Assembly: GCA_002049455.2 (NCBI GenBank)
Contig: KV918915.1
Coordinates: 62,001-126,000 of the forward strand
Source: Porphyra umbilicalis
Taxonomy: Eukaryota > Rhodophyta > Bangiophyceae > Bangiales > Bangiaceae
DNA: 64,000 bases
Direction of reading: 5' to 3'
The position numbers and the translations under genes were made by a program. The stretch's first letter is position 1. Each line of letters begins with the position of its first letter. Below, in pieces: positions 5,465 to 62,617 of this stretch. The notes beneath the pieces are model-generated. The model worked only from the letters and a program-made list of their open reading frames with translations. It had not been told where the DNA came from and ran no database searches.

Positions 5465-5501
5465 GAAGCAACGTCGGAAAAGATCTTTCCGACGTTGCTT
5501 C
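5465..5501. repeat. Perfect 16-bp inverted repeat (hairpin)
   Basis: Arms GAAGCAACGTCGGAAA (5465-5480) and its exact complement (5486-5501) enclose a 5-base loop. The hairpin is flanked on both sides by the palindrome GTGATCAC, twice on the left (near 5445-5462) and once on the right (near 5504-5511). It is not in a recognised gene. It could be the core of a small hairpin MITE. Confidence 0.85.
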
Positions 5502-5511
5502 AGGTGATCAC

Positions 5512-31708: not shown

Positions 31709-31739
<31 letters not shown>

Positions 31740-42300: not shown

Positions 42301-44199
42301 CGCCGCGCCACACCCACGCGCCTAGTTAGGCAAAGTCTATTGGCGCGCCATATCGCCATTTTGCGACGGCGGATGGCGAAGGGCATTTCTACCAGTGCGC
42401 CATTTCTTCATATTCCTCGCCATTGCGCCGTCGCTTTCGACAAATGTGCGCAGAATTGCGAGAAGGATAGCGAAAGATACCCTGTTCGCTAAATGCGTGG
42501 GCCAACGGCATGATGGGATGACGGATGTCTTGTGTCCACCAAGATTGAAGTTGTCAACGGCCCCATCCCACAGCGAACCCATGTGAGGACTTCATACAGT
42601 GCAAGGCGATCCCTTGCGCTGGGTGGCTTCCCTTATTCCATTCAGGAGGCATGGGGCATCGAAGTGCGTGATGAGGCTCCACTTCTGCGTACTCAAAAAA
42701 ATTGACCGATAGAGATGCGCTGTGCTATTGTCAAAACATATGGCTAAATGGCGAACGCGCAATGGTGCACGACTAGACTTGCTCTTAGAGAACGTCTATC
42801 GGTGCCCAGAACCGCCGTATTGCAGCTACGGACATATGTCTCGGGACGCCATTGAGCCATATCGGAGGGCATCGAGACATAGCCGTCGCTGTCTTTGCTC
42901 GAGATGCCTCTCTGTTTGGCGATCGTTGAAGCGATAGCCATACGCGAGAACCAATCATATGCCTTCCATGTCACGAGATCCCGGGAGTTCTCATGTGATT
43001 GGGTCAGAATTGTCAGGAAGCGTATCTTTCTGTGGTAAGTATTGAACTCAGGGATCAGTGTTCTCGGAGAAACCATCCATGATTAGCATGAATGCGGTGT
43101 ATTATAAATAATTCGCCTCGAAAATTATCAAAACCATCGTAAGCCGTGAGGCGCCACATCAAGGGGGTCCGCTGGTGCGCCCTGCAGGTCAGGCGTTGTT
43201 GAGGCGCTGCCGACGTGCTGACCCCAGCAGACGGCGACCTCTCCGTGTAACATATACCATCAAGGGCGAGGCTCTCGTCTTGCCCGAGGTGACAGCAATG
43301 TGTGCCTCTACCAGGTGCACTAGGGGACAGGATCGAGGGACCCATCCTGTGCCACTTGTGCCCCCTTGCCCTGTGCCCGAGTGTGCGATGTTGCCTGCTG
43401 GCGGTTCATTAGCGGCCGACAATGGCGGCCGGGTTGGTCGCACGCGTAGACTGATCATGCACTGTGCTCTGCAGCTGCTGTCCCTTGCCGCTGTCATCCT
43501 CGCGCCACAGTTAACCGGCGTCCCCACGACCGTGCCGGATGGGGAGGAGGCCCGGGGGACGAGGGAGGTGCGCATTAGTCCACCCCCTACAGTAGTGGAT
43601 TGGCCAACCACGTGGGCGTGAGGGAGCCACGTGGTGATGATATCATCCCACAGATAGGATGATCAGGATGATTTCTTCACTTTTATCGTCCAAACCATGA
43701 CATGATAATTATTCCCTCTCATCCCTGATTGAACTGTCGCCGTCGATGCCACCGCACGGTGCTAAGAGGCCCACCACGCGTATCCCAAGCCATACAGTTC
43801 ACAAAGACCCAGTGCGCAACATCATTCGTCCTATCACCCCCGTTAGTCTCGTTGGTCGGGCGCCAACAGCGGCGGGCTATGCATTGGAGGCGACTTATGG
43901 AAGATCCCTTTTCTTTGGACCCCCCTCCGTTTCCAGATCGGACCGAAAGTAAACGTGTTCAAACGTGCTGTCAACACCTGACACGGCCAGCCGCCCAATC
44001 GCAGGCGCGGCTTCGTGGACCGGTTGAATTCATGTATTGGTCACGGAAGCCTCGTCCTATCTCTCGAAAATGTCCCGGAACGCACGGAGTTGGCGTCGAT
44101 TGGGGCGGAATCATGCGGGGAAACTCTGGCGACCTCTGACATGCGGCCCGACGCCGCATGTTCCTGTCTTGTCGACTTGGCCACGGTGAGGCAGTGGTG
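39367..44199. other. Long intergenic region
   Basis: About 4.8 kb with no recognised gene. It includes a G run near 39471-39490, the 27-bp repeats at 39987-40130, and scattered short inverted repeats such as the TGGCGA/TCGCCA-rich stretch at 42330-42500. Neither TIRs nor an LTR could be paired. Confidence 0.5.
39987..40130. repeat. About 27-bp GC-rich tandem repeat
   Basis: Five degenerate copies of a unit containing CACCCTCCTGG and GACCGCCC. Both strands are open across it, which is a composition effect. Confidence 0.75.
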
Positions 44200-45945
44200 A
44201 GGTGGAGGCAGAACTCGCGGGAGGTGTACGACTGCATGGAAGTTGCCGCTTGCTGTAGGCGTGCAGTTTGTGCTTTTTGCCGGCGTGGCGGTGGCGGACG
44301 TGGAGCTGGACGTGGTGTCGGGGTCGGTGCAGCTTGTCGTCTGGCACGGCTCGCACGCTGCCGCTTGCGTTCCGCGTGCCATTGGTTCTTAATGGTGGCG
44401 TGGCTGCGGCGGACGTGGTGGAGGGGGTGGTGCTGCTTGTCGAGTGGGACTGTGTGCAAGTTGCCGCATGCGCGCCGCGTGCAGTCGGTACTTTTTGTCG
44501 GAGTGACGGCGGCCGACGATGCCGCGGACGACGAGCTGGACGTGCAGGCGGGGGTGGTGCGGCTTGTCGTGTAAGACGGCGGGCACGTTGCAGCTTGCGT
44601 GGGGCGTGCACTTTTTTCTTCTGGTCAGCGTGGCTGTGGCCGACGTGGCGCTGGACATGATGGCGGGGTTGGTGCGGTTTGTCGTGCGGGATGGCGTGTT
44701 CGTTGCGCTTGCGTGGGGCATGCAGCTGGTGCTTCTTGCCGGCGTGGCTGAGGCGGACTGTGAGCTGGACGTGGTGGCGAAGGTGATGGGCCTTGTCGTG
44801 TACGATGGCGTGCACGTTGCTGCTTGCGTGGGGTGTGCAGCTGGTGCTTCTTGCCGTCGTGGCTGAGGTGGACGTGAAGCTTGAAGTGGTGGCGGAGGTG
44901 ATGGGGCTTGTCGTGTACGACGGCGTGCACGTTGCTGCTTGCGTAGGGCGTGCACTGTGTGCTTCTTGTCGGTGTTGCTGTGACCGACGTGGAGCTGGAC
45001 GCTGTGTAGTGGGTGGTGCGGCTTGTCATGTGGGACGGCGTGCACGTTGGCGCTTGCGTGGGGTGTGCAGCTGGTGCTCTTTGTCGGCCTGGCGATGGCG
45101 GGGGTAGTGCGGCTTGTCGTGTACGACGTCGTGCACGTCGGCGCTTGCGTGGGATGTGGAGCTTTTGCTTTGAGTCCACCTGGCGATGGCGGGAGTGGTG
45201 CGGATTGTCATGTGGGAAGGCGTGCACGTTGCCGCTTTCGTGGGGTGTGCAGCTGGTGCTTTTTGTAGGCCTGGCGATGGCGGGGGTGAAGCGGCCTGTC
45301 ATGTGAGACGGCGTGCACGTTGCCGCTTGCATGGGATGTGCAGCTGGTGCTTCCTGCCGGCGTGGCTGTGGCGGACGTGGAGCTGGGCGCGGCGGCGGGG
45401 GTGGTGCGGTTTGAAATGTGGGACGTCGTGCTCGTTGGCGCTTGCGTGGCGTGTGCAGCTTGTGCTTCTTGCCGGCGTGGCTGAGGCGGACGTGGGGCTG
45501 GACGTGGTGGCGAAGGTTATGGGGCTTGTCGTGTACGACGGCGTGCACGTTGCTGCTTGCGTAGGGCGTGCAGCTGGTTCTTCTTTCTGGCGTGGCTGAG
45601 GCGGTCGTGGATCTGGATGTGGAGGCAGAGGTGATGGGGCTTATCGTGTGCGACGGCGTGCACGTTGCCGCTTGCGTTGCGTGTGCAGCTGGTTCTTCTT
45701 GACGGTGTGGCTGTGGCCGACGTGGAGCTGGACGCGGTGGCGGGGGTGGTGCGGATTGTCGTGTACGACGGCGTGCACGTTGGCGCCTTCATTTGGTGTG
45801 CAGCTGGTGCTTTTTGTCGGCCTGGCGGTGGCGGTTGTGGTGCGGCTTGTCGTTTGGGACGTCTTGCAAAATGCCGCTCGCATGGCGTGGGGCGTGCAGT
45901 TGGTATCGAAGTGGGAATATCTGCCTGGGTTGGTGTATATATATT
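44200..45945. repeat. Array A: 115-bp tandem repeat with 91-bp variant
   Basis: About 16 units. An anchor (GACGGCGTGCACGTTG, degenerate) recurs at 44804, 44919, 45034, 45125, 45216, 45307, 45422, 45537, 45652, 45767 and 45858. The spacings are exactly 115 or exactly 91, so a variant lacks 24 bp. Older, more diverged units lie to the left. On the minus strand the unit has almost no stops in any frame and gives His/Arg/Pro-rich protein such as HDKPHHPRHHVQLHV. Since 115 is not a multiple of 3 the frame rotates each unit. Same family and orientation as 49138-50410. Confidence 0.92.
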
Positions 45946-46059
45946 GATTGCGTACATGGTCGTTGGAAGAGTGGCACATCGATCAATAGTTGAAGTAAAA
46001 CGTAGCGGCTCAAGACAAGCAAATACAGGTGTACCACAGCAAAGCAGCGCACTACCTCC

Positions 46060-46953
46060 TCACTCAGCACGGCCCTTTCTCTTCCCCTTGTACGGCTGGC
46101 ACACATGCGCCACGTAGTCGTCGCAAGAGCGGTAGTGGCAGCCGCACCGCGGACACTGAAACCAAACGCGGGCGCCGGGTGGGACCACTACCGCCACCGG
46201 GACGCGGCCAGCCCCAGACGTCGGTGACGCCGACGCGCCGCCCGGTCTCGTGCGTGCCGAATAACCATCCACCCAAGCGTTATCGCCCACACCAGTCGAC
46301 TGCGGAGAAGCGCCGGACGAGCCAGATTCATCAGACGAGGTCGGCAGCCGTCCCCTCCCCGCGTGAGCAGCGTCCGCGAGCTTCTATGAACCCGATGCAT
46401 ACGCGTCGTCGTCGCGTCGGCGCTTGTGTCGGCGGGCGTCAGCAGGAGGTGGCTCGGCCACAGCTCCACCAGCACCCCCACCAGCGCCAGAAGACCCGCC
46501 GTGGCCGGCCGCGAACGCGCGAACGTGGGAATGAGCGGTGCGACCCGCTTCGCGAGCGGCGGCCGCAGGCGCAAGGAAGCCGGCGTCGTGTTCAGCTTCA
46601 CGCAGCACGTCTGCAAAACGAGCATCGTCGTCTCCAGCGCGCCTGACTTCTCTCACCGCTGCATGCAGGCGAGGCAACAGAACATGGAGCTCGGCGCGCC
46701 GCCCGCTGTCCTTCAGACCAGCCACGGCGCGTCGGTGGCCAGCGCCACTCAAGTGACTGATGAGACTTGTCGGGGCGTCGCTTCTCGCCAGGCACGTCGG
46801 GCACGTCCAACGAGTAGAGTGGCTGGCGTTGCCGGGCTTGTGCGTCGCGGCGGCGCGGAACGCCCTCTTCTTGCGTGGAGCCCCGCGGACGTGCTCATTC
46901 CAGCTTGCGCGGCGGCGGGGGTGGTGCGGTTTGAAATGTGGGACGTCGCACAC
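46060..46953 (-). pseudogene. Two-zinc-finger ORF with one in-frame TAG
   Basis: A frame of about 297 codons. Finger 1 (CPTCLARSDAPTSLISHLSG.GH) fits a C2H2 finger (C-x2-C-x12-H with a later His). Finger 2, near the C terminus, has CPRCGCHYRSCDDYVAH, also C-x2-C-x12-H, and ends in a basic tail. Between them are an acidic/Ala region and a basic DARRHKRRRDDD stretch that could be a nuclear signal. A single TAG (near 46384) splits the frame into 189- and about 107-residue parts. It could be a nonsense mutation, or part of a TTCATAG acceptor if an intron is present. The N-terminal 45 bases match an array unit. No ATG is evident at the start. The family is unknown; a DNA-binding role is inferred only from the fingers. 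Confidence 0.55.
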
Positions 46954-46955
46954 TT
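46910..46955. repeat. Solo partial 115-bp unit at the zinc-finger ORF
   Basis: About 45 bases (GGGGGTGGTGCGGTTTGAAA and flanks) match array A near 45385-45430 almost exactly, then diverge. It overlaps the start of the zinc-finger ORF, in the same orientation as arrays A and B. Confidence 0.8.
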
Positions 46956-46956
46956 G

Positions 46957-49137
46957 TTAAAGCCAGAAGGCTCAGGCCGCTGGGGTAGGAAGGGCGGGGG
47001 TGGTGCGGCGGCCATGTTGTGAAAAAACACAGAAAGGGCGGGCAAGGTGAAGCAGCGCAGCAAGCGGCTGCAACACCAGGAAGGAAGACCACCGACGAGA
47101 TGTGCGACGGAGACAGGGCCACAGGCATTGCTGGAAACGCATCTGACAGAAAGTCGTGATCCTCGGCGGCCGCGCCATTGCCGGTGTTGCACACTGTGAC
47201 CCATTTTGTGGCCCGAAACGATTCCGTCTCAAATTGGGAGATACTTTGATTTTCTGCATTCTGAGGACAGAAATGATGCATTACACAGCGTCTTTCTCCG
47301 GGGCTGGCCAATGAGGCGATGACGTCAGGAGCGAGTGTTGTAAGTATGATACTCAGGACCCCGGCGTCCCAGTGTAGTCCGCGACTGCGTCTCCAGTACA
47401 TCAGACGTGCCAAGCCAATGCGTCCAAGTCGACGCGCGATGCCGCCGTCGGCGAAGCGGAGAAACAATCCGCGGCACCACGGCTATGGCATGGTGCCGTC
47501 CTTAGTCGCCGGACGCATCGCATCCGAGTGCAGCTCTGTTGTTGCGTCCGACGCATTTCACCCCTACGACGATCGTCCGAGGCCCGTTCGAGAGCGGCCG
47601 CCGCAGCGGCGCCCCGCAGGAACGAGAAAGAGTACGGCACGTTCGTCATGACCGTCTAGAGGGGTTCCGGCTCCATTACACGTACCGCCATCAAATACCA
47701 CTCACATATGTACTCTGCCGATCCGACTGCTGTCAAGTAATGATGCTCGACTGTTTCATCCTCCATCGTGCACGGCCAATGATCGATCGGATGTGCGCCA
47801 CGACCGAGCGCGTCAAGTGTGAAACCCCCTGCTATGGCGTGTGGGCTGTCGCGCGAGAAAGGCACGCCAGGCTGTGCTTGTCGCCATATTCTGGTTGTCG
47901 TATCTCAGCTTCGCAGTCCGCTGTGCACCGCTGGCAAAGAACGACGTGAGGCAGATCTCATTTTCTTTCTCGCTCCACAGTGGAGCGACATCGTCAAAGA
48001 GCGGGACATGAAAGCCGCATCAAGTGGAGCGAGAAGACGACTGGCGGACGTACCCCTGTCCAGTTCGGACTGTGGTTCATTTCGTCTGCGTTATGAAGCT
48101 TCGTCGTCGACGGGCCGGACGACAATCTGTCGCCAAGTCGAATAAGTGCGTGTGCGGAGAATTGTCACAGGACTTCTCAGTGGGGTTTCACGTTCCTAAC
48201 GCTGATCTACAGCTCGGGCGCCTCCGTCGCCCGCAGTGTCGGCGTGTTTGGCTGCCAGAGCGTCTCATCAATCGGCGTTTGGTAAAACTCTGTTAACTTT
48301 TCTGAGGGAGGTAGCCTGTGAAGCAGGGAGATCGACTTCCAGCAGACGAGCGAGTGGCCAGCAGAGTGTCTTTCGTGGAAGCGCTCTACTGATTGGTCTC
48401 TACACAAACCGATAGTAGTCCGCGCAGGTTGGGGTGGCGAACGGCGCTACCGTCGGGCTGTCGTCCCCACCACCGTCGAGCGCTTCGTCACCGTCGTGAC
48501 CCGCTTCACATCCCCGGTCACCATGACCGTCCCTCTTACCGGCTTCCCGGACTCCTACGTCGTGTGCTTGCAAGCGCTATGCGGTACGCCTCAGAATATG
48601 GGTCTATTCGATACTTTACCTGTACTCAGCGGGTCATGTCTCTCTTCGCTTTTTCGTCTAGCCGTGTGCTGCAGAATCTCTATGGTCTTCTTTATACGCC
48701 GTCGTGGGATGCATGCGGCACATGTTGTTGTCGTGGGCGACGCGGCCTTCTCGACTGCGAGCCACCTCACTTCATTCACGTTGTGTTACCCGTGTGTCGC
48801 TCCCCATTCATCATGCAGCCTCTCATGTCGCTACTGTGTCTGGGTGCTGACAGGGCCATTCCGCATTGTCCCGCGCATCCTTAAGATGACCGCCCGACGT
48901 CTCATTTTAGTGTAAAATCCGTGCTTTATTTTTTGTCGTGACGATTTATATACGGCGGCAGGAGGCAAGCGCCTCATCAAGGCCTTCTCCCATTGTTGTG
49001 GCGGTGCCGATGTTCGCCGAGGCCAGTTGTGCACGATGCCGACGGCATACAGCGTGCAGTTCGTCGTCATTCTTGTTGTGCCAGTGGCCGTCGTGAGGGT
49101 GGCCTGAGTATCGGAAGAAGTGAAGTCTGATCAGTGG
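46957..49137. other. Region between the zinc-finger ORF and array B
   Basis: Balanced composition with no recognised gene and no frame above about 165 codons. Together with 45946-46956 it is the core flanked by arrays A and B. Confidence 0.5.
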
Positions 49138-50410
49138 GGCGCCGTCCAAGTCGCAGCCTGCGTGGGGCGTGCCGCTGATGCTTTGTGGTGGCGTGACGGC
49201 AGCGGACGTGGAGCCGGACGTGGTGCCGAGGGCGGTGCGGCTTGTAGTGAGGGACGGTGTCCACGTTGCCGTTTGCGCGCGGCGCGCAGCTGGTTCTTTA
49301 TGCCGGCGTGGTTTCGGGGGACGTAGGGCTCGACGTGGTGGCGGGGGCAGTGCGGTTCGCGGTGAGGGACGGTGTTCAAGTTGCTACTCGGTTTTGCGTG
49401 CAGTTTGCCCTTCTTATCGGCGTCGCTGCGGCGATCGTGGGGCCGGACGCGGCGGCGAGGGCGGTGCAGCATGTCGTGTGGAACAGTGCGCAAGTTGCAC
49501 CTTGCGTAAGGTGTGCAGCTGGTGCACCTTCTCGGCGTGGTGGTGGCGGAAGCTGCGGCGGACGACGAGCTGGAAGCGGTGGCGGGGGTGGTGTGGCTTG
49601 TCGTGTGGGACGGCGTGCATGTTGCCGCTTGCGTGAGGCGTGCATTTTGTGCTTCTTGACCGCGTGGCGGTGGCTGACGGGGAGCTGGACGTGGTGGCGG
49701 GGGTGGTGTGGTTTGTTTCGCGGGACGTCTTGCAAGATGCCGCTTGCGTGGGGTGTGTAGCTGGTGCTTTTTGTCGGCGTGGCAGCGACGGACGTGGAGC
49801 TGGATATGGTTGCAAGGGTGGTGCGGTTTATCGTGCGGGACCGCTTGCAGGTTGCCTCTTGCGTGGGGCGTACACCGACGTTTTTTTGTCGGCGTGACTG
49901 GGGCTGTCGGGGAGCTGGGCGTGGTGGCGGGGGTGGTGCGGTTTGTTTCGCGGGACGTGGTGCAAGATGCCGCTTGCGTGGTGCGTGCAGTTTGTGCTTC
50001 TTGTCTGCGTGGCAAAGGCGGACGTGGAGCTTGACATGGTTGCAAGGGTGGTGCGGTTTATCGTGCGGGACCGCTGGCAGGATTCCTCTTGCGTCGGGCG
50101 TACACTGACGTTTTTTTGTCGGCGTCGCTGCGGCTGATGGGGAGCTGGACGTGGTGGCGGGGGTGGTGCGGTTTGTTTCGCGGGATGTGCTGCAAGATGC
50201 CGCTTGCGTGGTGCGTGCAGTTTGTGCTTCTTGTCTGCGTGGCGGTGGCGGACGTGGAGCTGGACATGGTTGCAAGGGTGGTGCGGTTCGTCGTGCGGGA
50301 CCGCTCGCAGGTTTCCTCTTGCGTCGGGCGTACACCGACGTTTTTTTGTCGGCGTGGCTGCGGCGGTCGTGGAGGTGGACTTGGTGGCGGGGGTGGTGCG
50401 GTGTGGCCCA
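49138..50410. repeat. Array B: 115-bp repeat with dimer organisation
   Basis: About 11 units. The anchor recurs at 49253, 49368, 49481, 49609, 49724, 49839, 49954, 50069, 50184 and 50299. The last six are spaced exactly 115. In that stretch two subtypes alternate: GACGT/GATGT...CAAGATGCCGC and GACCGCT.GCAGG...CCTCTTGC. This gives a 230-bp higher-order unit. The minus strand is stop-free in overlapping frames for hundreds of codons. Sequence and orientation are as in array A. Confidence 0.93.
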
Positions 50411-52146
50411 CGGGACAGCTCACCAGGGCCGACGCGTCTTGCGTCTGGGGCGCGGTGGCGGCGCTCAGAGTGGGGACGCCTCGCCGGACTTGGCACGTGA
50501 CGACGATATCTAGCTGCTGAGATGCAGTCGCTTCGCAGGTCGCGGAGTGAGTGAGGGCCGCTTTGCCTTGGAGGACGGGCAAGCATCCGTTGTTGAACAG
50601 AAGGGTTTCGGTGACGCTGTGATGAAGGACTCGGATGTAGCCGTGGTTGAAAAAGAAAATGCCAAGGACTGTACTCGACTACCAGCGCCATGTCATGCTG
50701 GAACAGTGAAGCAACGAACGAGGGTGGTATGGCGTGAGTACGACGAGCAATGTCGCTTTATGAGACAGGCGGTTCAGGCATGAAAAGGTGAGCGGGACAA
50801 AGCAAAGTCATTGGCGTCCAGCGGACGTTGAGGGCGAGAAGCGATCACATGTCCATTTCGCAGGTCCCACCGACCAGTTCGGGGTACCTGAAAGCACGGC
50901 TCGCGGCCGACCACCTTGCATACTGAGCAAATCCTGTTACACACACCCCCGCCGTTAAGATCACCATGGAAATGAACAGATAGAGGAAGATAAAACGCAT
51001 CATCGACAGGAAGAGTATGGCGACAAGTAAAATCGTTGTGCGGGCACGTAGATGCGTTGTGATGCTGGTGGCCGATGGGCAGCACCCCCCAGCAGGTTTG
51101 GCATGTCGTCATGTCTGAATTGGAGGAGTCTGGGTGACTGAAAGGGACGTGGACATCAGCGAAGAACGGCAGAACGATAGTCGTCAACACCCATTCCATC
51201 ATGTCATGCACGCTGCACCCAGCGACAAAGACGATTTACCGCGCTGCAGCAATCCACGGGATAAACAAAAAACAGAACTTCAAACAATACTCGACATCCA
51301 AAACCATTGGCAATCGAGCCTCCCGCACAAAAACATACCATGACGCCCGGAAGACTGTGAGACAGAATGAGCGACCACACCAGACAGTAGAGCACGCGTG
51401 GTGAGCGCATAAATGGGGGGCTGTCTCTTGTCGTGCAGGATGGGGCTTGGCACCAACTCACAGATCGCGTGCTCCGAATGGTGATTCTCAACACCGCAGG
51501 AGGGGATGGCGCAGTCCCTGGCAACGGCAGGGGGCACGTGCGATTCGATCGGCAGCAGGGATGGTAATCCTCGACGGTGACGGCGGTGGTGTCGACGACG
51601 GTGACGGCTGACCCGGCCCGAAGTCGACAGCGAGATCCAGCAGATTGACGGATTCTGTGGTCTACTTTTTCAATTTTTTTATTCAACCAGGCGAACCGCC
51701 TCTGTGGACGTTCGATGCAGTCGAGATCTGTAGGTTCGACACGAACGTGTCCATCCATGACCACCGACCACCAATCCCAACGCGTTGGTATGCTGCCGGG
51801 AGCACCGTCTGCGAACGGAGTGCAGCGAGACTTGAAAGAAACGTAATTCGCTGTCTGAGCCTGGAGCAGTGAAGTGCCCTCAGCACCGGACTCGGGCCCA
51901 GTGCGCCCGCATCACTTCGTGTTCCGGACTAATGCGCTTCACGTCATCGATACTCGTACGTCGGCATCGCGGAACAAACGTTCTTCTGCACCGCAATGCG
52001 CCAGCAGCCGCACATGCCGCCCTCTCCGGCTCCTCGCCACAGTGCCTGAGTGCCAGACATCTTTCCAACCGATTGCATGCCCGTCCGTTGCCGACCGACA
52101 GGGTTGGACAGATGGCGCATCCAGCATGGCTACGCCTGATGCTCGT
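50411..52146. other. Intergenic region, no gene recognised
   Basis: Balanced composition. A 186-codon minus-strand frame at 51204-51764 has no domain. The far end may hold the 3' flank and terminal repeat of the transposase unit at 52147, but no TIR was found. Confidence 0.5.
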
Positions 52147-53280
52147 CTAAGGCGTGGAGAGCAAGGGTCGTGGCGGGAGGCACTTCAATGTCTGACGCTC
52201 TTCCCTATAGCAAAAGATCGAATCAGATTGAAGACAATGTGAGATGTATTCGGCGATGATCGACTCAATGACCTTGCGAACCCGATCGAACTGCCCGATG
52301 ATCTGGCGTCGAGAGAGCTTGCTTGCCGCTGTCGCCTGCAACAAATGTGGGTCGTCCAACAAGTCCGGCATCACATACACCAAGTTCCGGATCACAATTT
52401 TCAAGTCATTGCAGACGCCCTTGATTGGTTGCAGGTCGGGACTGTACGGTGTTAGACGCAAAAAGGGGACGCCGTTGTTTCCGAGGAATGTCTCCCCACC
52501 AGCGTTGTGGATGGGCGCATTGTCGAACAGAACGACGCAGTTGTTCGACTGCTGGCTCCACGGGCGCCCCGGAACACACACACCCAGTTTTGGGATGAGC
52601 AGTTGCAGGAACAGTCGGCAGTCCGCCGACGTCAGCGCGCCTCTCCCCACCACCACGGACTGGAAGCCCAAGATGCGGCCATCACTCGACACAGCCATCG
52701 TCGTGCTTGTCCGCGGAACCGACCGGGGGTCCCGGCCGTGGACGTCGTCGCGCTCACGAGCCAACGCCCGCCCGTACAATCGGAAGACATCGCCACCGTC
52801 TGTGTGTGCCTCGTCGACTGACACGATGCAGCGCTCGGGGATGTTGTCCTGGACGAGGACGTGGACGCGCCGCACGGCGGCCGACGCCTCACAAAAGAGA
52901 CGAAGCGAGCGCTTGCGTGTGAAACCCACCTCGTGCAAGTGCCGGTCGATTATACTCTTCGATGCACGCAGAGAAATACACTCGCCGCTGGGGTGGTTGC
53001 GCATCAGCTTGAGCATCTCGGAGTGCTCCCGTAACAGAGCCCGCGGATGCTCTCGCACCAGGTGCACCATGCAGGTCATGAGCGTTTTTTCAAACCAGAC
53101 GCTGTTGTGGTGCTGGTTCTGCCGCAACGGGTCCCTCCATACTGATCCGTGCTCCCGGTAGTACTTGGAACAGCGCCTGTCAATTGACCGCTTGACGCCA
53201 ATGTTCTTATACAGCACGCTCTGGCGCACCCCATTCCACAACATCGTCACAGCTACAAGACGCATGTCGACGCTGTACAT
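52147..53280 (-). CDS. IS630/Tc1-mariner-like DDE transposase, probably inactive
   Basis: The ATG at 53280 starts MYSVDMRLVAVTMLWNGVRQ, giving 377 residues. That suits a helix-turn-helix region (SVLYKNIGVKRSIDRRCSKY) followed by a DDE domain. The first acidic block is CIVSVDEAHTD, the second VVLFDNAPIHN, and the third LRLTPYSPDLQPIKGVCNDL. In this superfamily the third block normally reads PxE, so the catalytic Glu is replaced by Lys (AAG at 52420-52422). The frame is otherwise intact to the stop at 52147. The open frame extends upstream into the 149-bp array, but the family N terminus fits 53280. No TIRs or TA duplication were located. It could be a recently dead copy or a domesticated non-catalytic derivative. 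Confidence 0.85.
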   Translation of the reverse strand: MYSVDMRLVAVTMLWNGVRQSVLYKNIGVKRSIDRRCSKYYREHGSVWRDPLRQNQHHNSVWFEKTLMTCMVHLVREHPRALLREHSEMLKLMRNHPSGECISLRASKSIIDRHLHEVGFTRKRSLRLFCEASAAVRRVHVLVQDNIPERCIVSVDEAHTDGGDVFRLYGRALARERDDVHGRDPRSVPRTSTTMAVSSDGRILGFQSVVVGRGALTSADCRLFLQLLIPKLGVCVPGRPWSQQSNNCVVLFDNAPIHNAGGETFLGNNGVPFLRLTPYSPDLQPIKGVCNDLKIVIRNLVYVMPDLLDDPHLLQATAASKLSRRQIIGQFDRVRKVIESIIAEYISHCLQSDSIFCYREERQTLKCLPPRPLLSTP

Positions 53281-53439
53281 TTCAGCCAGTCGGGATAGCA
53301 CAGTAACTAGCTCCCCAACCACCAAGCCCTGCACAGCAACGTGCTCGAACAGCCACAGCAGCGCGCCAACGCGCACTTGCACGACGAGCAAGAGCACCCC
53401 GCCAGACGGCACTTGGACACGCAGCAGCACCACCAGCAG

Positions 53440-55150
53440 CACCACGTGCACGGCCACAACAGCCGTGCCAAGATTTACACCAGGCGCACCGCGTCCGCCG
53501 CCGCCACCACAAGCTCCACTGCAACGTGCACAACGCGCAAGAGCACCACTCCAGCCAGCACTCGCACCCGCAGCAGCACCGCCAGCAGCTCCACGTGCAC
53601 GACCACAACAGCCGTGCCAAGATTTCCACCAGGCGCACCGCGTCCGCTGCCGCCACCACAAGCTCCACTGCAACGTACACGACGCGCAAGAGCACCACAA
53701 CAGCCGGCACGTGCACCCGCTGAGGTACCGCTAGCAGCACCGCGTGCATGGCCACAACAGCCGTGCCCAGATGTCCTTCAGGCCCACCGCCTCCTTCAGG
53801 CCCTCCGCCTCCTCCGCCGCCACCATAAGCTCCACTGCAACGTGCACGACGCGCAACAGCACCACGACAGCCGGAACTTTCACCCGCAGCAGCACCGCCA
53901 GCAGCACCGCGTGCACGGCCAAAACAGATGTGCCAAGATGATCACCAGGCGCACCGCGTCCGCTGCCGCCACCACAAGCACCACTGAAATGTGCACGACG
54001 CGCAAGAGCACCACTCCAGCCAGCACTCGCACCCGCAGCAGCACCGCCAGCAGCTCCGCGTGTACGACCACAACAACAGTGCCAAGAGTTCCACCAGGCG
54101 CACCGCGTCCGCTGCCGCCACCACACGCTCCACTGCAACGTGCACGACGCGCAAGAGCACCACAACAGCCGGCACTTGCACCCGCAGCAGCACCGCCAGC
54201 AGCTCCGCGTGCACGACCACAACCGCCGTGCCAAGATTTTCACCAGGCGCACCGCGTCCGCTGCCGCCTGCACAAGCTCCACTGCAACGTGCACGACGCG
54301 CAAGAGCACCACAACAGCCGGCACTTGCACCCGCACAGGCACCGCTAGCAGCACCGCGTGCATGGCCACAACAGCCGTGCCAAGATGTCCATCAGGCCCA
54401 CCGCCTCCTCCGCCGCCACCACACGCTCCACTGCAACGTGCACGACGCGCAAGAGCACCACAACAGCAGGAACTTGCACCCGCAGCAGCACCGCCAGCAG
54501 CACCGCGTGCACGGCCACAACAGCCGTGCCAAGATGATCACCAGGCGCACCGCGTCCGCTGCCGCCACCACAAGCACCACTGAAATGTGCATGACGCGCA
54601 AGAGCAACACGACAGCCGGCACTTGCACCTGCAAGGGCCCCACGAGCAGCACCGCGTGCACGGCCTCAACAACTGTGCCAAAAAATGTCCACCAGGCGCA
54701 CCGCGTCCGCCGCCGGCACCTCAAGCTTCATTTCAACGTGCACGACGCGCAAGAGCACCACAACAGCCGGATCTTGCACCCGCAGCAGCACCGCCAGCAG
54801 CTCCGCGTGCACGACCACAACAGGCGTGCCAAGATTTTCATCAGGCGCACCGCGTCCGCCGCCGCCACTACAAGCTCCACTGCAACGTGCACGACGCGCA
54901 AGAGCACCACAACAGCCGGTACTCGCACCCGCAGCAGCACCGCCAGCACCACCGCGTGCACGACCACAACAGCCGTGCCAAGATTATCACCAGGCGCACC
55001 GCGTCCGCGGCCGCCACTACACGCTTTACTGCAGCTTGCACGGCGCGCAAGAGCACCACGCCAGCCGGCTCTTGTACCTGCAGCAGCACCGCCAGCAGCA
55101 TCGCGTGCACCGGCTCAACAGCCGTGCTAAGATGTCCATCAAACCCACCG
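53440..55150. repeat. Array C: 149-bp tandem repeat
   Basis: About 12 units. The anchor CACCGCGTCCG recurs at about 53492, 53641, 53957, 54106, 54255, 54553, 54704, 54853 and 55002. Spacings are 149 (occasionally 151) or multiples of it, and two variant units with CCACCGCCTCCT sit in the gaps. Each unit carries GCAACGTGCACGACGCGCAA. Frames are open on the plus strand (His/Gln/Ser/Thr-rich) and on the minus strand (Val/Leu-rich or Cys-rich). Since 149 is not a multiple of 3, frames rotate. It abuts the transposase start. Confidence 0.93.
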
Positions 55151-55199
55151 TCTCCGCTCTCGCCTCCGCGAGCGCCAGAAGACGAGCACAAAGCACACT

Positions 55200-56160
55200 A
55201 GGTCCGCGTCCTCGGCCACGGCTTCGTCGTGTCGCTCAGCACGTTGGGCTGCGCGCACTACGCGCGCCTTGGCCACCCCCCCCCCGAGATGCGAACCGAG
55301 GCAACCACGTCCGCGTCGCCGTCGGCGCGCGTCCCTGTCGCCGACGGCGGCCGGGTCGAGATGCAAAAGATGATCCGCCACGCAATTCCTGCGCGCCTCC
55401 GCCACCCCCCCCCGACATGAAAATCAAGCCGACCACGTCCGCGTCGGCGACAGCGCCCGTGTCGTAGCGCGATGCCGGTTGCGCTACGCGCTCACCGCGC
55501 GGCTCCGCCACAGCCCCCCGGAGCCTTAAAACGGCTCTCCCGACAGCGCCAGTGTGGTGCCGCCGTTAATGCACAGAAACACGCTGCGCGTGCGCACGCT
55601 CTTCAACTTCAGGCGGCACGACGGCGCCCGGCACCAGCAGGCAAACAAACGCAACGTGAGCACCGCGCGTGTGCGTCTCCGACCGCCAACTTCTTCGTGC
55701 GACTGCACTTGCGCGTGTTCGAGATACTGCTCTCACGGTGAAATGGCGCGCGATCATCGGATGACAGCTGTCAGCAAAATTACGGAGATCCCTTCCACCG
55801 CCCCCATCTGTGGCGCACAAATCCACCAGACTTTGTCTTTCTCGAACGTAATACGAACACAAGAAAGGCTCGTGTTGTGCACGCAATAGGAGCCATATTC
55901 GAATTAGCGTCGACTCTCGGGCGCACACGCTGGGCTCAGAAAAAAGAGGCGCGTCGTATGGTCGTCATTGCACAACAAGTTCAGCTGCGTTTCCAATGGC
56001 ACAAACGACGCGCTCAATGCACCGCAGAAATGAAAGCCTTTCCAAGGACAAAGAACGGGGCACAACGCGAAGCGCGCATGAGGTTCTCATTGATGCACCT
56101 TCCCGGCGGCCGACAGCACCGCGTCCTGTAGGTCCGTGAGAAGCAGCACACGCACACTTC
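55200..56160. other. GC-rich flank with a two-copy repeat
   Basis: Two diverged copies (about 55255-55400 and 55400-55500) share GCCACCCCCCCCCCGA and ACCACGTCCGCGTCG blocks, about 145 bases apart, perhaps an eroded continuation of array C. The rest, to 56160, shows no gene. Confidence 0.5.
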
Positions 56161-56185
56161 ACTCAACCCACCCTGGAACCTCGTA

Positions 56186-58774
56186 TCAATAATCAAAGAA
56201 CAACTCCTCTCCAGCACACAGCGGCGCCTTGGCAAACAGCCCGACTCTAATCTCGCCACACACGCTCAACAGCTTCGCCTCGACGTTGGAATGCTCCGTT
56301 GTGCGGTGGTTCATGAATTTCATTCAGTTGCGAACCCGTGTAGCGTCTATGTTCACCGTCTTGGTGATGGAGTACAGAACGCTCACCCCGTTGGCGTCAT
56401 ACACGCGCACATAGAAGACAACGACTGCCGCTGCCAGACGTCATCGACTCGTGCGATTTCCACATCCTCCGCATGAGTGGTTGGAGGCCGAGGAGCATCG
56501 GCGTCGCCCTTCGCCGAGGAGGGACCAGCTACAACGGCCTCACCATCGCCAACAGAAGCGCCGACAGCGTTGCTAAAAGCGGGTGACGCAGTCCCGCCCG
56601 CAGTGGCGCGCCTGGTGCCACGCACGAAACGCCCGGCGACGTCGCCATCGCGTTGGGCAACAGCAACGCTTTTAGCCACAAGAGTGGAAACCGGCGGGCG
56701 GCCGCGGCACCCTGCATTTGGCCCAACGTCTGTTCGCCGCGCGTCGGCGACGGCCGAGCCACCACGTAACTCGACAGTCGGTCCAACATGCAGACACGTC
56801 GCCTCCGCCCAGTCGAAGCAAGCCGAGATCCGTGCGCCTGCGCCGGCGCGTGGGACAACTGGGGCGACTGCCGAGTCGCCCGAAGCGCGGCGGGGAGACC
56901 ACTCTAGCCCGTCCGCGTCCGCACCGTCGGCGCCACGAGGAAGCCCAACCGGGCGAGGGGGAAGCGGCTCAGCCAGCGGGTCGCCGTCACGTGCGTCGTG
57001 CAGCCGACAAGCATACCGCAGACAGACACGGCACAGGAGAATACTCAAATGTCCCCTTTGCGGCAGCTGGAGTTAGCCCGCCACCGCTATAGCGGGTCCG
57101 GCAACACTGGCGCCGGTTGGCGCCGCGTGGCCAGCACCGAGCAGAGTGCCGACAGACGGCAGGTGCGCGGCAGCATCAGCGCCGCCATGAGCTCGAACGA
57201 CAGTGCGTAGCATCCGAACAGCAGCGGCGTCGTTGCGCATCGCGTCGCTCCCCGTGTGCGACTGCCGAACTAGCTCGGCTTGCCGCAGAGCTCACACACG
57301 ACTCAAATGAGGGAGGCGAGCGGCTGCGACGTCGGCCGCTGACGCCGCAGCCGCAGATGTGGAGGCCCCGAAGGCGACTGGTGCGTCTTGCACTCGGGGC
57401 TCGGGGGGCGCCGCTCCCGCGGCTTGAAAACGCAGAACCAGCCTCACGGCCGCCCTGCTCCCGTACAGCGCCGCTAGCGAGCACCACTGCGAGGCTGCCG
57501 CCACCCGTCAACTGCTCCAGAGCGGCTTGGCGGGTGGCCTGCGCCTCGCGCTCTGACGCGGCGCGGCGGTGGTCGTCCCCCCTCCGCTGGACGAGCTTAA
57601 CCACGTGCGTCATGTGAGGCAGCGTCTCCCCCAGCACCTCGGTCAAAGTGTGCACCACCGCCGGCGAGTCACCAAGCGCTTGAACAACTGCGTACACGCC
57701 AGCGCGCTGCGCCATTCGGACGGTCCGCTCTCCAAGCGAATGGTATCGATTTTCGAGGTGGGTAGGCTCATCGTCTGACGCGTCACTGCCGTCACTGTTG
57801 CAGTCGGAGGCCGTCCACCCGTTCTTGCGCATGATGGTCGCCGCCGCAGCATGCTCGTCGTCGGTGTCTCCGAGGTAAGGAGTGTGCTTGAAGGAGGCAA
57901 CGCCCTCGACCCGTCGCCACGACCGCCACATCGACGTTTACGCTGACGCCGTCGGGAGACGCTCAACCGCGGGCAGTATCACAACTGGCACCGCCCGCTC
58001 TGGGGCGTCAGGTGCGGGAGTGGTCGCCCCGCTTGTCGACCAAGAAGCAACACGAGCAGCATCAGCGGTGTCAATGCCACCAGCTTCACGCGCGGCAGCA
58101 GCAGAGCCGAGGCCGTGTGCGGTAGGAAGGGTAGGAGGCGACGAGCGAGACAGTTGGGGGACGCCGTGGCAACCCGCTCTCACACCGCGCGGGACAAGCG
58201 GCGAGGCTCGTGACACTCGCATGAACTCTAATATCGTTCGCTGCCTCTTGCGGGGGGGGTTGCTCTGCCTGGCATCCAGCTCCACGACGGCTGCTCCAAC
58301 CACTCCATCGTTCCCAGCAGGACATACCCCGCCAGCAGTGCCACTACACCAGTTGCCACGGCCACTCGGGCAGCCTCGTGACACTCCTTTCGCCTCCACC
58401 AGCAATATGTCGCCATCGCGAAGAACGACCGAGGCGTCCGACCTCACATCACACGGATCAATCGCAGCTTCAATGGGTGCCGGGCGGACGTCGGCGCCCG
58501 CGCCCGACGCCGCCACATACCGTGCACGCCTCAATACCTTTTGACGGTTCACAAAAATAGCAATACGAAATTCCGCGCTGCGGCGCTGACGCGCGCGGCG
58601 CCCTGCTCGCCCGTACAGACGATAAGCAACACGATGGATGCTGCGTGCATCGCCGGCGATAGCAGCAACGCGCTCAGGTTCTTCAGCGTCCGAGTCCACA
58701 TCAGACAGGGCTCCTACCGCGTTTGGCCACTCGTCCACGAATGCCTCGTCAGAGCCACGACGCGCTGCATCCAT
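56186..58774 (-). pseudogene. Decayed Enhancer-of-zeste (E(z)/EZH-type) gene
   Basis: E(z) is the H3K27 methyltransferase of Polycomb complex PRC2. From the ATG at 58774 the relic shows, in order: FVNRQKVLRRA near 58540 (compare SSNRQKILER in EZH2); FKHTPYLGDTD near 57875 (compare LHNIPYMGDE); LCRVCLRYACRLHDA near 57000 (compare FCRRCFKYDCFLHP); and the SET C-terminal half at 56466-56186, with VNIDATRVRN, MKFMNH and GEIRVGLFAKAPLCAGEELF followed by FDY. Segments lie in different frames, with shifts near 57935, 57500 and 57150, some possibly unrecognised introns. The cysteine-rich CXC domain and the first half of SET are absent. TGA codons occur at 56324-56326 and 56186-56188, each where relatives carry Lys/Arg or Arg. 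Identity is strong from four ordered motifs; function as a methyltransferase is unlikely. Confidence 0.8.
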
Positions 58775-58849
58775 CGTGCGGACCCCAGAAAACCACGAGG
58801 CAGCGACTAATGGCACGTACTCGCGACCGCTGACGGCTAACAACGACCG

Positions 58850-59366
58850 ACAATGATGGCACGCCGATCAAAGCACGCCCGCTTGCTCGAGGTGCTTCGG
58901 AACTAACACAGCAGCGGGGTGTCTGGTGCTTCTACTCAGATCAGACCAATCAGAATGTGACATGAGACATGAGCGGCGTATTTGCGACCTCAAATCCGAT
59001 ATTTGTCCCATTCACATTGATCAATCGTGCATTCAATTTGGGCCCTCCGGACGCATCCGTCCAAGACGCAATCACCGCGCCTCTTGCACTGCTCGAAGCC
59101 AATTTCGTTCCACTTGGTCCGGCCCGACGCCCAACTCCGGCCGTCACGCCTCTGACTGAACGCCAGTGGCGTTCACTGCCGCTGGCACCGTTGTCGTTTG
59201 CAGGCCGTCACTGCCCAATCATCACCCCCTCCGGACGCCCGGCCATCCACACAACCCCATAACCGCGAAAGCCACACCCTGTCGACGACAGCAACACCTT
59301 CGTGTTACGAACTTCCGCCCATCTCGACAGCCGCCACACGCCCGCCTCGCCCGACAACCAGCGCGA
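58850..59366. other. Intergenic region, no gene recognised
   Basis: Balanced composition upstream of the E(z) relic. No motif seen. Confidence 0.45.
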
Positions 59367-59830
59367 CGCGCTCCCTGTTCCGCGTCCGCAGCGGCAACGC
59401 CATCACGCGGAACGTCGCAACCTGCATCTGTACCACCTGCACGACGGTCGTGACGCCCGAAGCAGTCGCCAACGACGGGACGTGCACCAACTGGCTCGTC
59501 GTTTCAACGACGTACACAACTGCCGCCACGACCAACGGCTTGCGCGAAGCGCTCCTTCCTCCGCGTCGGCACGAGCAACGCCGCGACCAACAGCTCGCGC
59601 TACGCGCTCCCTGCTCCGCGTCGGCGCCGGCGACGCCACAACCAACCGCTTGCGCGGCGCGCTCCCTGCTCTGCGTTGGCACCTGCAACGCCGTCACGCG
59701 CAATGTCCCCACCTGCATCTGCACCAACTGCGCAACGGTCGTGATACCCGACGCCGTGTCCGACGACGGGACGTGCACCAACTGGCTCGTCGATTCAACG
59801 ACGTATGCAACAGCGGACACGACCAGGCGG
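59367..59830. repeat. 291-bp duplication with 55-bp subrepeats
   Basis: GGGACGTGCACCAACTGGCT recurs at about 59478 and 59769, 291 bases (97 codons) apart, with about 110 bases of similarity upstream. Between the copies, CTCC(C/T)T-initiated units recur at 59552, 59607 and 59662, every 55 bases. On the plus strand the duplicated part reads as a Cys/Thr-rich peptide (CICT.C, DGTCTNWLV), and many differences fall at third positions of that frame. The minus strand is open too. A gene here is possible but unproven. Confidence 0.7.
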
Positions 59831-61010
59831 ATGACCCGCCCGCCGCCGCGGCTGCCGCAAGTGAGGGGGTGGGACGGGATGGCGAAGGTGTTGCTGCGGC
59901 TGCCGGGCGGGGCGAATACGACCAGGCGGAGGCGGCTAGAGCACCACCCGCCGGCGGTCGGCGCTGGCGGCGAGCGCGCGCGTCGTCCACGGCGCACGTG
60001 GGCCCGGCACCGGTGGGCAACGAGGCCCATTCAGATGGCTCTGGGTGCGGGGCGGGAGGCGCACACCAACCACGCAGTGCAGCTGGTGGCTGAATCCACC
60101 TCCAGCCCCGTTTTTCCCAAAATGGCTCAAACAAGAACTTGCACGACCCCTGGTAAGCACCTGTACGAGGCTTTTTTTTTCCAAACACATGTTGAGGCGT
60201 GCATACGTTGCAAGACTTCATACGTAGTCCGCGGCCACGTCAGCGCGGCCGGACGCGCCAGCGCAGGTACTGGTATCCGTGGGTGGAAGGGCGGTAGCTG
60301 CATGGGGGGAACCGCACTGCACTGCACGTTCCGACCTGGGGCCCATGACTTCCGACCACCGTCGCGGGCACCGTATTCTGACGCCTGTGCATCTTCCTGT
60401 CCATCGCTGGGCCGGTGCTCGATGGACCGCGAGGCGGCAGCCGACGAGCTCGACCTGACTGTGTTGCTGAAGTCTCGAGCGCATCTCGACGTCCGCCGCA
60501 CCCTGCTGGCCGTACGTCAGGGCCGTGTACCCAAGCGCGCAGAAGGCTCCCGGCCAGGTCGCCGACCTAACCGGCCGCGAGATTTCGACCTCGGTGCACG
60601 TGCCACAAAGGAGTCCCCTACACACATATGCCTTTGACTCCTTCGGAGCTTCTGTCTGAAAGAAGGGCAATGGAAACCACGGTACAACGTTGAAGGAAAA
60701 AAATTGGGAGTGGAAAAAATAATCATGATGTTCTTCTACGCGGCGGTCATTGAAGCAGCAGCACAAGCTGCTCATCGTAGCAGCACAAGTCCGAAAAAGG
60801 AAGCATTATCACACACACTACTGGCACTGTACAAGCAGAGAGTTAATCATTCAAGTTTGCCACGTACGTGGCCATCGCAAAGACAACAACGCCACTGGTG
60901 TGGCGTTGTCGTGCGCCCGTCTGTCCTTTGTTCTTGGCCAATATGTCATGGCCTTTCAGTCATTGTTCTTCTTCATCAGCACTTTCCTCGTCGTAGTCAG
61001 TCTCCGTATC
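59831..61010. other. Intergenic region, no gene recognised
   Basis: A GC-rich start (59831-60070) and then balanced sequence with A-runs near 60690-60730. No domain is recognised in any frame. Confidence 0.45.
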
Positions 61011-61013
61011 CCA

Positions 61014-62439
61014 CTACATGCAGTCGACGATGCGCGCGTCGAGGTTGATGCCGCCACGATGAGCCATGTCCTCGAAGCGCCGTCGCTTGGAAAAGAGAGA
61101 GGCGCGGCCAAGACTCATGGCCCCAGGGTGATGGGGTGGCAGCGTCGAACGGGAGTAACTGACGCCCTGAGGCGTGACGCGGGAGGAGCTACCAAGCTCG
61201 TGTCTACCAGAGTTGTCTGTCACTGCCGGGCCCGCGTGCGTGTCTTGGGTGTCGCCTGTCGCCTCCTCCTTGTCCGCACCGTCGCTCAGGCCACTGTCGC
61301 CAGACGGTTGGGATGCTATATGCGCCGCGGCCGCCGTGGCAGCCTCCTCAATCGAGCTGGCTGGTGCCGGCCCAGTTGCTGACGGCAGGGGGGGACGGCG
61401 TACGTTGCGCAGAAGAAGCCGCATACTCTTCTGCATGCGCAGAGCCAGGAGGAGTGAAGGCATTGGCTGCGTCCGCGTTAGACACCGACTCCTCTTCTGA
61501 GGATGAAGACCATCCACCTCGGCGCGCTCCCTGCAGTCAATTGCCGCGGCAACGCGCGTGTACAAGACCAGAACCTCGTCCATTGACATGGGCACGGGCA
61601 CATCTGCCGCCACGGCCGCTCCCACGTCCACGCCCGCGGTTTCCGGCGCGCATACCACTACGCCGACCGCCGCGGGCAGCGCCTCGGCGACATGGTGGAA
61701 AGGCGGCCGCCATTGCGGCAGCGGCCACGTCCAACTGGTCCTGCATGTGAGCTTCCTCTTGTGCGTCTGGCACGATGACATTGGCCGTGGCCTGGCTATT
61801 TGTGTCCTCTTGTAGGCGACGGCGCATCTCTCGCTGCCACCAAAGGCGCCCTTGCGACAAGTACGTCGCCATGGTTGTCGACCTAAAGGCGATGGTGGCA
61901 CGCTGCGCAGCCGACCGGGCAATCGAGTTGAGCGCCGCCATGTTGGTAATCGACTGGCGTTTCAGCGTCACCTCCATGCTGGCGGACGCCATGCCGCGGC
62001 ACAGAACCTCGCGCTCGTCTGGCATCCATAATACGCCGCGGGTACCCTCCCCGCCATTGTTCTCGGAAGGCGGGGTACCCCGGTGCGGTTCCTCCTCGGC
62101 CTGGCCGGAACCGTCATTGCCGGACGGCGCGGCAGCCGAACGTCCTGCCGCTGAGCTTAGCCGGAGAGGCGAGCTGCTCCCAGAAGTCGGGTCCTCCAAT
62201 CCTTCGTCCAGGAGGTTATCGCGGTGAGGAGGCGGGGTGGGTGGATGGTTGCGATTGGCGGTCGGGCCGTGGTCATCGCTGGAAGCGGGGGGGTGGTTGC
62301 GGTCTGGGCCGGGAGGGTGGTCGTCGGAGGTGCCTTAGTCGCCCATGTTCTGGCCGCCATGGTGTTGGTGTTGCATTGGCTGATATTCTTGCGTTTGTTG
62401 CGGCAAGGGAGCCATGGGGACAATCTCATCAATGTCCAT
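61014..62439 (-). CDS. Unrecognised gene, probably multi-exon
   Basis: An ATG at 62439 begins MDIDEIVPMAPLPQQTQEYQ. An in-frame TAA at 62335-62337 follows, then the same frame runs on through an acidic, Ser/Pro-rich stretch. It reaches an ordinary-looking helical region near 61830-62000 (TLKRQSITNMAALNSIARSA, then YLSQGRLWWQREMRRRLQED). Near 61750 the protein-like signal changes frame. Further stretches follow: VPMSMDEVLVLYTRVAAAID near 61570, an acidic SSSSEEES near 61500, and a C-terminal piece SLFSKRRRFEDMAHRGGINL ending at 61014. Frame changes suggest short introns, and the TAA could lie beside a CTAAG acceptor. No domain was recognised and no function is proposed. Confidence 0.45.
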
Positions 62440-62617
62440 GTTCTGCGGCCTTGGTTTTGAGCATCGTACGCGATGTTGATGAACGATTAAGGAGCCGAAG
62501 GACACGAGGTTGCGCTTGGGGAAGACGGAAACAGCGGAAGGAAGGACAGCCGTGAGCACGGCCGAAGTCAAACGAGGGAAGGCTAAGAACGACGGCGGGG
62601 TGGCAGCGGCCCCAAAG

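What the first reader, a model, noticed from the sequence alone, without database searches (positions are those of the whole stretch)
44200..50410. Two same-orientation 115-bp arrays flank a zinc-finger ORF
Arrays A and B share one unit in one orientation and enclose about 3.2 kb that holds the two-finger ORF; a solo partial unit lies exactly at that ORF's start. This is not an LTR, TIR or satellite layout I recognise. It could be a mobile unit whose own protein binds the repeat, or segmental expansion around a gene.
Basis: partly seen in the sequence, partly recalled or inferred. Interest (0 to 1): 0.8.

Follow-up and report, generated by a model that had tools for sequence, protein, structure and literature searches.

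The report
Giant jumping gene carrying Polycomb enzyme
The two repeat arrays are internal parts of a roughly 20-kb cut-and-paste transposon of a red alga that also carries zinc-finger and Polycomb-like histone-methylation genes, hinting that the element handles its own chromatin.

Summary
In detail: two same-orientation 115-bp arrays flank a zinc-finger gene. But they are not the ends of the mobile unit. In this red-alga genome the pair recurs inside a larger DNA transposon: on 11 contigs TA-flanked inverted ends (28-bp TIR) face each other 14.5-32.8 kb apart (two may be assembly overlaps), and one copy has an empty site with a single TA. The transposase is DDE_3 (IS630/Tc1/mariner) type. Copies with open frames also encode a three-finger protein and an E(z)/EZH2-like CXC-SET methyltransferase. 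The window copy is dead: finger 1 overwritten by a 42-bp array-like patch (the 'solo unit'), CXC and half of SET deleted, a catalytic residue changed, right end lost.

Related genes cluster genome-wide: 61 of 85 SET hits lie within 20 kb of a related transposase (about 5 expected); 23 of 26 SUZ12-type VEFS-box hits lie near SET/CXC genes. Four of four diverged finger genes sampled (three families) have a different tandem repeat within 1.5 kb of the 3' end.

Best reading: the finger protein binds the arrays and, with Polycomb-like subunits, sets the element's own chromatin. Anatomy is shown; function is inferred. SET genes in DNA transposons have precedent.

The parts
43896..59825 (+). Window copy of the giant transposon, truncated at its right end (facing ends elsewhere 14.5-32.8 kb apart)
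   Evidence: Shared left boundary with different flanks in window and nine other copies; right-hand matches stop at 59825 while other copies continue
43898..43925 (+). Left terminal inverted repeat (28 bp, two mismatches to the commonest form), preceded by TA at 43896-43897
   Evidence: pattern search with 35 hits, 0 in the control
44224..45905 (+). Array A, 115-bp units (16 profile matches)
46063..47016 (-). Zinc-finger gene, broken in this copy; three fingers in other copies
46907..46948 (+). Solo 42-bp patch identical to array A 45387-45428, in place of finger-1 coding sequence; not in the nine other copies aligned
49150..50402 (+). Array B, 115-bp units (11 profile matches), same orientation as A but a distinct unit lineage
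52252..53289 (-). Transposase (HTH_23 + DDE_3), third acidic residue changed in this copy
53378..55138 (+). Array C, 149-bp units, no significant similarity to the 115-bp unit
56189..56365 (-). Remnant C-terminal half of the SET domain of the E(z)-like gene
56402..56411 (.). Junction of a ~1.12-kb deletion that removed CXC and the N-half of SET, present in at least ten other copies
56412..58843 (-). Remaining upstream part of the E(z)-like gene, frame broken; MCSS-like motif near 56989-57042
   Evidence: the same motif lies upstream of CXC in one open frame of locus C1
59343..59825 (+). Stretch that is multiplied in other copies (array D); window copy ends here

Best explanation
Shown: the two arrays are internal repeats of a giant cut-and-paste DNA transposon with an IS630/Tc1/mariner-type (DDE_3) transposase, 28-bp terminal inverted repeats and TA target duplication, in a red alga. 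Copies with open frames also encode a three-finger C2H2-like protein, an E(z)/EZH2-like CXC-SET protein and a long right-end ORF of unknown function. Related transposase, zinc-finger and SET genes cluster genome-wide, and in other families a SUZ12-type VEFS-box gene lies beside the SET gene. Inferred: the finger protein binds the tandem units next to its own gene and brings E(z)-like (and, in some families, SUZ12-like) subunits to the element, or blocks the host complex there, so the element controls its own silencing between jumps. The arrays would be landing pads whose sequence turns over along with the finger protein. The window copy is a decayed remnant that lacks its right end and so cannot move by itself.
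For: Ends, TIR, TA and empty site. Both arrays in 14 of 17 left-end places; the 18 listed array-bearing contigs all carry other element parts. Arrays in one orientation in 10 of 10 copies, and the nearest neighbour of 255 of 255 full units is of the same array type. Transposase DDE_3 1.3e-9 and HTH_23 3.1e-7. SET 4.2e-15, CXC 6.9e-6, best PDB match EZH2 3.1e-34 against 3.4e-15 for the best non-EZH enzyme. CXC-SET between families: dN/dS 0.12-0.18 in the four pairs with dS under 1.5. Clustering: 61 of 85 SET hits within 20 kb of a transposase relative, 4.7 expected; outside the window's own family 47 of 69. VEFS: 23 of 26 within 20 kb of SET/CXC. Tandem repeats 3' of diverged finger genes, 4 of 4 (3 families), none the 115-bp unit. 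Precedent for a TE protein whose targets form tandem repeats in the element: VANC (PMC5735166, abstract and one section read).
Against: No binding, expression or chromatin data. Among copies of the family the frames drift near-neutrally (pN/pS: finger gene 0.98 and 0.91, transposase 0.77, upstream E(z)-like pieces 1.11, 0.68, 0.59), expected for dead copies but no evidence of function. No VEFS hit was listed in the window's own family. Ends were mapped only for this family; for the others the link rests on clustering, and only 11 of 26 VEFS hits are within 20 kb of a transposase. 24 of 85 SET hits have no transposase relative within 20 kb. Most between-family dN/dS values rest on saturated sites (9 of 36 pairs without a finite dS). 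The array criterion was set after the first two flanks were seen; two of the four flanks are one family; the repeats there have only 2.0-3.4 copies and in three flanks lie some 600-900 bp from the gene. The mechanism is inference.
Confidence: 0.7

Rival explanations
1. The arrays are passive minisatellites: internal tandem repeats that arose in a large transposon and expand and shrink by slippage or unequal exchange, with no function; the cargo genes act alone.
For: Unit numbers vary freely between copies (profile matches A 16-78, B 10-22); other internal arrays (C and D) have other units; the genome has other minisatellites.
Against: Both arrays are kept in the same orientation in 10 of 10 copies, and a tandem repeat 3' of the finger gene recurs in three further families with different units although only 17 of 399 overlapping control stretches have one.
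Confidence: 0.4
2. Host genes (SET, VEFS, zinc finger) were picked up passively as cargo and are maintained only by hitch-hiking.
For: Gene order and orientation differ between families; copies drift near-neutrally within the family.
Against: The same gene set recurs beside transposases that are roughly 50-75% identical, and CXC-SET shows purifying selection between families.
Confidence: 0.15
3. Segmental expansion around a host zinc-finger gene, with no mobility.
For: Arrays flank the gene in the window.
Against: Different flanks at a fixed boundary in 10 copies, inverted TIRs, TA on both sides, and an empty site.
Confidence: 0.01
4. An endogenous large DNA virus or virus-like element rather than a transposon.
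For: Size of about 20 kb with several genes.
Against: Of 16 frames scanned in Pfam (two of them outside the element) none gave a capsid, polymerase or packaging hit (not every frame of the element was scanned); a scan of viral contigs with the transposase gave no relative; the ends are those of a TA-target transposon.
Confidence: 0.03

Closest known systems
IS630/Tc1/mariner superfamily DNA transposons
   Same: DDE_3 transposase with helix-turn-helix, short TIRs, TA target duplication
   Different: 14.5-32.8 kb instead of the usual few kb (recalled; a 4.4-kb autonomous Tc1/mariner element is named in a passage of PMC12477816); carries finger, E(z)-like and unknown genes and long tandem arrays; 33 residues between second and third acidic residues
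HarbingerS and MuDR elements of Phytophthora that encode a SET methyltransferase (Kojima and Jurka 2014, seen only as cited in PMC12730594)
   Same: DNA transposons carrying a SET histone methyltransferase gene
   Different: Other transposase superfamilies and host; whether theirs is E(z)-type with CXC or comes with VEFS was not seen
TET/JBP-encoding fungal DNA transposons (PMC12730594, abstract and passages)
   Same: Transposons of several lineages carrying an epigenetic enzyme, proposed to escape silencing
   Different: DNA demethylation enzyme, not a Polycomb-type methyltransferase
VANDAL elements with VANC anti-silencing protein (PMC5735166, abstract and one section)
   Same: Element-encoded protein whose targets lie in fast-changing tandem repeats of the element
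   Different: MULE transposons of Arabidopsis (class recalled); VANC is not a C2H2 finger (recalled); binding there is shown, here inferred
SETMAR/Metnase (PMC9062482, PMC4593633, listings only)
   Same: SET domain joined to a mariner transposase
   Different: A single fused host gene, not a mobile element with separate genes
PRC2 core (EZH2, SUZ12)
   Same: CXC-SET and VEFS-box domains
   Different: Here the genes lie in or beside transposons; complex formation unknown

Membership tests
IS630/Tc1/mariner superfamily | TA target site duplicated on insertion | tested here: met
   Empty site C81 with a single TA against C5 with TA on both sides; TA at left in 10 of 10 and at right in 10 of 10 examined ends, two of which (C5, C482) share one flank
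IS630/Tc1/mariner superfamily | Terminal inverted repeats | tested here: met
   28-bp TIR
IS630/Tc1/mariner superfamily | DDE_3-type transposase with HTH | tested here: met
   Both above Pfam cut-off; all three acidic residues kept in 8 of 9 other copies, the second changed in C2
IS630/Tc1/mariner superfamily | Small size, single gene (recalled; typical, not strictly defining) | tested here: not met
   14.5-32.8 kb, several genes
HarbingerS | Harbinger transposase and 3-bp target duplication (recalled) | tested here: not met
   DDE_3 transposase, TA duplication
E(z)/EZH family | CXC domain followed by SET | tested here: met
E(z)/EZH family | MCSS and SANT2 upstream | tested here: inconclusive
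   MCSS profile E 0.07 on the window protein; weak alignment to the EZH2 SANT2 region (5 bits)
E(z)/EZH family | H3K27 methyltransferase activity | not testable with these tools
   Needs an assay
PRC2 | SUZ12-type VEFS-box partner | tested here: inconclusive
   23 of 26 VEFS hits within 20 kb of SET/CXC genes, none listed in the window's own family
VANC/VANDAL-like system | Element protein binds its own tandem repeats | not testable with these tools
   Only co-occurrence of finger gene and arrays
Ordinary satellite DNA | Genome-wide arrays with no link to a gene | tested here: not met
   18 of 18 listed array-bearing contigs carry other element parts; the list is capped

The most novel reading that the evidence does not exclude
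A superfamily of giant TA-target transposons in a red alga carries its own partial Polycomb machine: E(z)-like and, in several families, SUZ12-like subunits, guided by an element-encoded multi-finger protein to family-specific tandem arrays in the element, which lets the transposon write or withhold its own repressive chromatin. Polycomb subunits would then be mobile genes, and host Polycomb silencing of transposons would have a selfish counterpart.
Probability: 0.35. Interest if true: 0.92.

Novelty: new variant of a known kind. Interest (0 to 1): 0.8.

Why it matters
PRC2 has been proposed to have begun as a silencer of transposons (passages of PMC10638273 and PMC8788455). Transposons that carry E(z)-type genes, with SUZ12-type genes next to them in many families, would turn that idea around and make it testable in one genome with dozens of copies. 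Tandem repeats beside the finger gene, different in each family looked at, suggest a fast-evolving protein-target pair like VANC in plants, in a far-off lineage and with a different enzyme.

Tried and rejected
Arrays A/B as terminal repeats of the mobile unit: rejected, the ends lie outside. Array C as an inverted relative of the 115-bp unit: best score 32 against a shuffle mean of 22.9 and maximum of 41, rejected. Protein-coding arrays: 115 is not a multiple of three, dropped without a test. C352 SET as the host E(z): no CXC hit beside it and a post-SET-like tail (recalled motif), so not taken as E(z). A host E(z) outside elements was not identified. Viral contigs with the transposase: no relative. 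PDB by sequence with the transposase: only weak matches, Sleeping Beauty E 0.13. Species: a plastid contig with phycobiliproteins points to a red alga; species not resolved. Genome-wide search for the right-end ORF: machine error, then the cap, so not done. Structure prediction and fold search were not run. Literature on SET or Polycomb genes in DNA transposons of algae: searches; in their listings (some capped: 15 of 20, 10 of 661, 8 of 25, 12 of 22) I saw no report of a Tc1/mariner-type or red-algal case; only open-licence PMC papers are held.
Full report
Check of the observation. Tandem Repeats Finder gives overlapping ~115-bp arrays with rows at 44308-45834 and 49445-50402. A profile built from the unit gives 16 matches in A and 11 in B at E 1e-5, all on the + strand, none elsewhere in 43501-51000. 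The space between holds zinc-finger coding sequence on the minus strand (46063-47016).

The arrays in the genome. The window is G000:C155:62001-126000 of an 83.8-Mb, 665-contig assembly. All 18 carry other parts of the same element: left end, transposase, finger gene or right-hand part. Of 17 places with the left end (an 18th row is the second piece of the C2 copy), 14 have both arrays and three do not (C101 and C106 show one array, C15 is a 183-bp fragment), judged. So the unit is not a free satellite.

Borders. Against nine other copies, similarity begins at window 43892-43896 in every one and the sequence before it differs. The right end lies far beyond the window's copy: matches run to window 59825 and go on in other copies, ending in an inverted copy of the left end. 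The TIR is 28 bp, flanked by TA. A pattern search (26 letters, up to 3 mismatches) finds 35 ends (20 forward, 15 reverse; control 0); on 11 contigs two ends face each other 14.5-32.8 kb apart: C2, C5, C25, C92, C101, C113, C144, C177, C187, C313, C482. C482 and C313 share their right flank with C5 at 100% and end there, probably a contig-end overlap, so nine pairs are safely independent. C59 has its right end in the other orientation.

Empty site. Contig C81 holds the left flank of C5 (97 bp, 89%) and the right flank of C5 (448 bp, 87.5%) joined by one TA; C5 has TA on both sides of the element. It came from a hit; flanks of the other copies were compared with this one stretch only, and no other empty site was sought.

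Genes. Minus-strand transposase: DDE_3 1.3e-9, HTH_23 3.1e-7, both above cut-off, with 33 residues between the second and third acidic residues (counted in the sequence). In the window copy the third acidic residue is changed, and in copy C2 the second is. Finger protein: zf-met 9.5e-5, above cut-off; three cysteine-histidine fingers are visible by eye in other copies. E(z)-like protein: SET 4.2e-15 and CXC 6.9e-6, both above cut-off; best PDB match EZH2 at 3.1e-34, best non-EZH enzyme 3.4e-15 (60 of 110 matches shown). In C482 the gene lies in two neighbouring frames of 647 and 624 codons; in C187 the SET hit lies in an open frame of 1091. An MCSS profile match is weak (0.07), but the motif also precedes CXC in one frame of locus C1. 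A right-end ORF of 809 codons has no Pfam family above cut-off. Its last 520 codons were looked for in 10 other right ends and found in 10; 4 have no stop, one of these covering only half, and C313 matches at 59% with gaps and 7 stops.

The window copy is dead. The solo unit is a patch not present in the nine other copies aligned that stands in place of native finger-1 sequence, read in full against C313. An in-frame stop splits fingers 2 and 3. About 1.12 kb with CXC and half of SET is missing at 56402-56411 but present in at least ten other copies; half a SET domain remains at 56189-56365. The right end is gone.

A wider family. Relatives listed: transposase 117, finger protein 92 rows (91 used, one overlapping row on C131 dropped), SET 85, CXC 78, VEFS-box 26; these are lower bounds. 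Of 85 SET hits 61 lie within 20 kb of a transposase relative, 54 near a finger relative, 46 near both; about 4.7 expected near a transposase under a uniform model. Without the 16 SET hits of the window's own family, 47 of 69 lie near a transposase (counted). Of 78 CXC hits 61 lie near a transposase. Of 26 VEFS hits 23 lie near SET/CXC and 11 near a transposase; three lie near no SET/CXC gene. One VEFS sequence was read. Gene order and orientation vary between families. Ends of the other families were not mapped. In pairwise comparison of CXC-SET between nine sequences, 9 of 36 pairs have no finite dS; the other 27 give dN/dS 0.11-0.25, and the four with dS under 1.5 give 0.12-0.18. Finger proteins are less alike than transposases in some loci (C404, C1, C409: 39-40% against 74%) and less clearly in others (C41, C21, C138: 44-45% against 57-58%).

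Arrays as a recurrent feature. In 10 copies A has 16-78 profile matches and B 10-22, always in one orientation; for 255 of 255 full units the nearest neighbour is of the same array type, and 75 of 82 B units have it in another copy; of 173 A units 95 do (67 of the 173 are from the expanded array of C2). Thus A and B are ancestral and distinct, and B has hardly been homogenised since the copies parted. In flanks fetched 3' of four diverged finger genes all four hold a tandem repeat: 78 bp (C41, 2.2 copies twice), 164 bp (C409 and C378, one family, 3.1-3.4 copies), 202 bp (C416, 2.0 copies); none matches the 115-bp profile. In control sequence outside the element 17 of 399 overlapping 1.4-kb stretches have such a repeat (period at least 50, score at least 180; three arrays in all). 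The criterion was set after the first two flanks were seen, and only three families are independent.

How it likely works. Mobility by a TA-target transposase is shown by anatomy. I infer that the finger protein binds the arrays and that the E(z)-like protein, with a SUZ12-like partner in some families, changes chromatin there. Precedents are VANC, whose targets often form tandem repeats (PMC5735166, abstract and one section), TET-carrying fungal transposons, and SET-carrying HarbingerS and MuDR elements (PMC12730594, abstract and passages). Whether the SET protein silences rivals, tunes the element's own expression, or competes with host PRC2 is open. PRC2 as a silencer of transposons in unicellular lineages is discussed in PMC8788455 and PMC10638273 (passages). 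Rhodophyte E(z) proteins form a clade of their own in PMC9018016; the passages shown there for the terms I searched do not speak of transposon-borne copies.

Novelty. DNA transposons with a SET gene are known, so this is a new variant: a different transposase superfamily, E(z)-type enzyme, VEFS neighbours in other families, finger protein with adjacent arrays, red-algal host. The searches listed under Tried and rejected showed no such report in their listings.

Noticed in passing
window 60231-64000: Another repeat family: matches C97, C34 and C108 at 83-87%, parts on C243 and C9.
   Followed up: no
C482, C313, C5 right of the element (L040): Nearly identical flank of about 5 kb on three contigs whose left flanks differ; two contigs end there, so probably a contig-end overlap.
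   Followed up: partly
G000:C59:119574-157856: Copy with its right end in the other orientation; 153000-157856 reads as 149-bp array and the next known element part starts only at 140496.
   Followed up: no
G000:C2:148272-154249: About 6 kb inserted 244 bp from the left end of the C2 copy.
   Followed up: no
window 1135-2256 and 2789-11585: Open frames resembling Ty1/copia reverse transcriptase and Ty3/gypsy gag-pol by eye, not tested.
   Followed up: no
window 29776-29927 and 28392-32873: Very large GC-rich open frame with a 21-bp acidic repeat, perhaps a host gene, not identified.
   Followed up: no
G000:C478:12126-12476, C6:429693-430049: VEFS-box hits with no SET/CXC gene within 20 kb; candidates for the host SUZ12.
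   Followed up: no
G000:C15:73229-73411: Isolated 183-bp left end of the element, perhaps a fragment or a short derivative.
   Followed up: no
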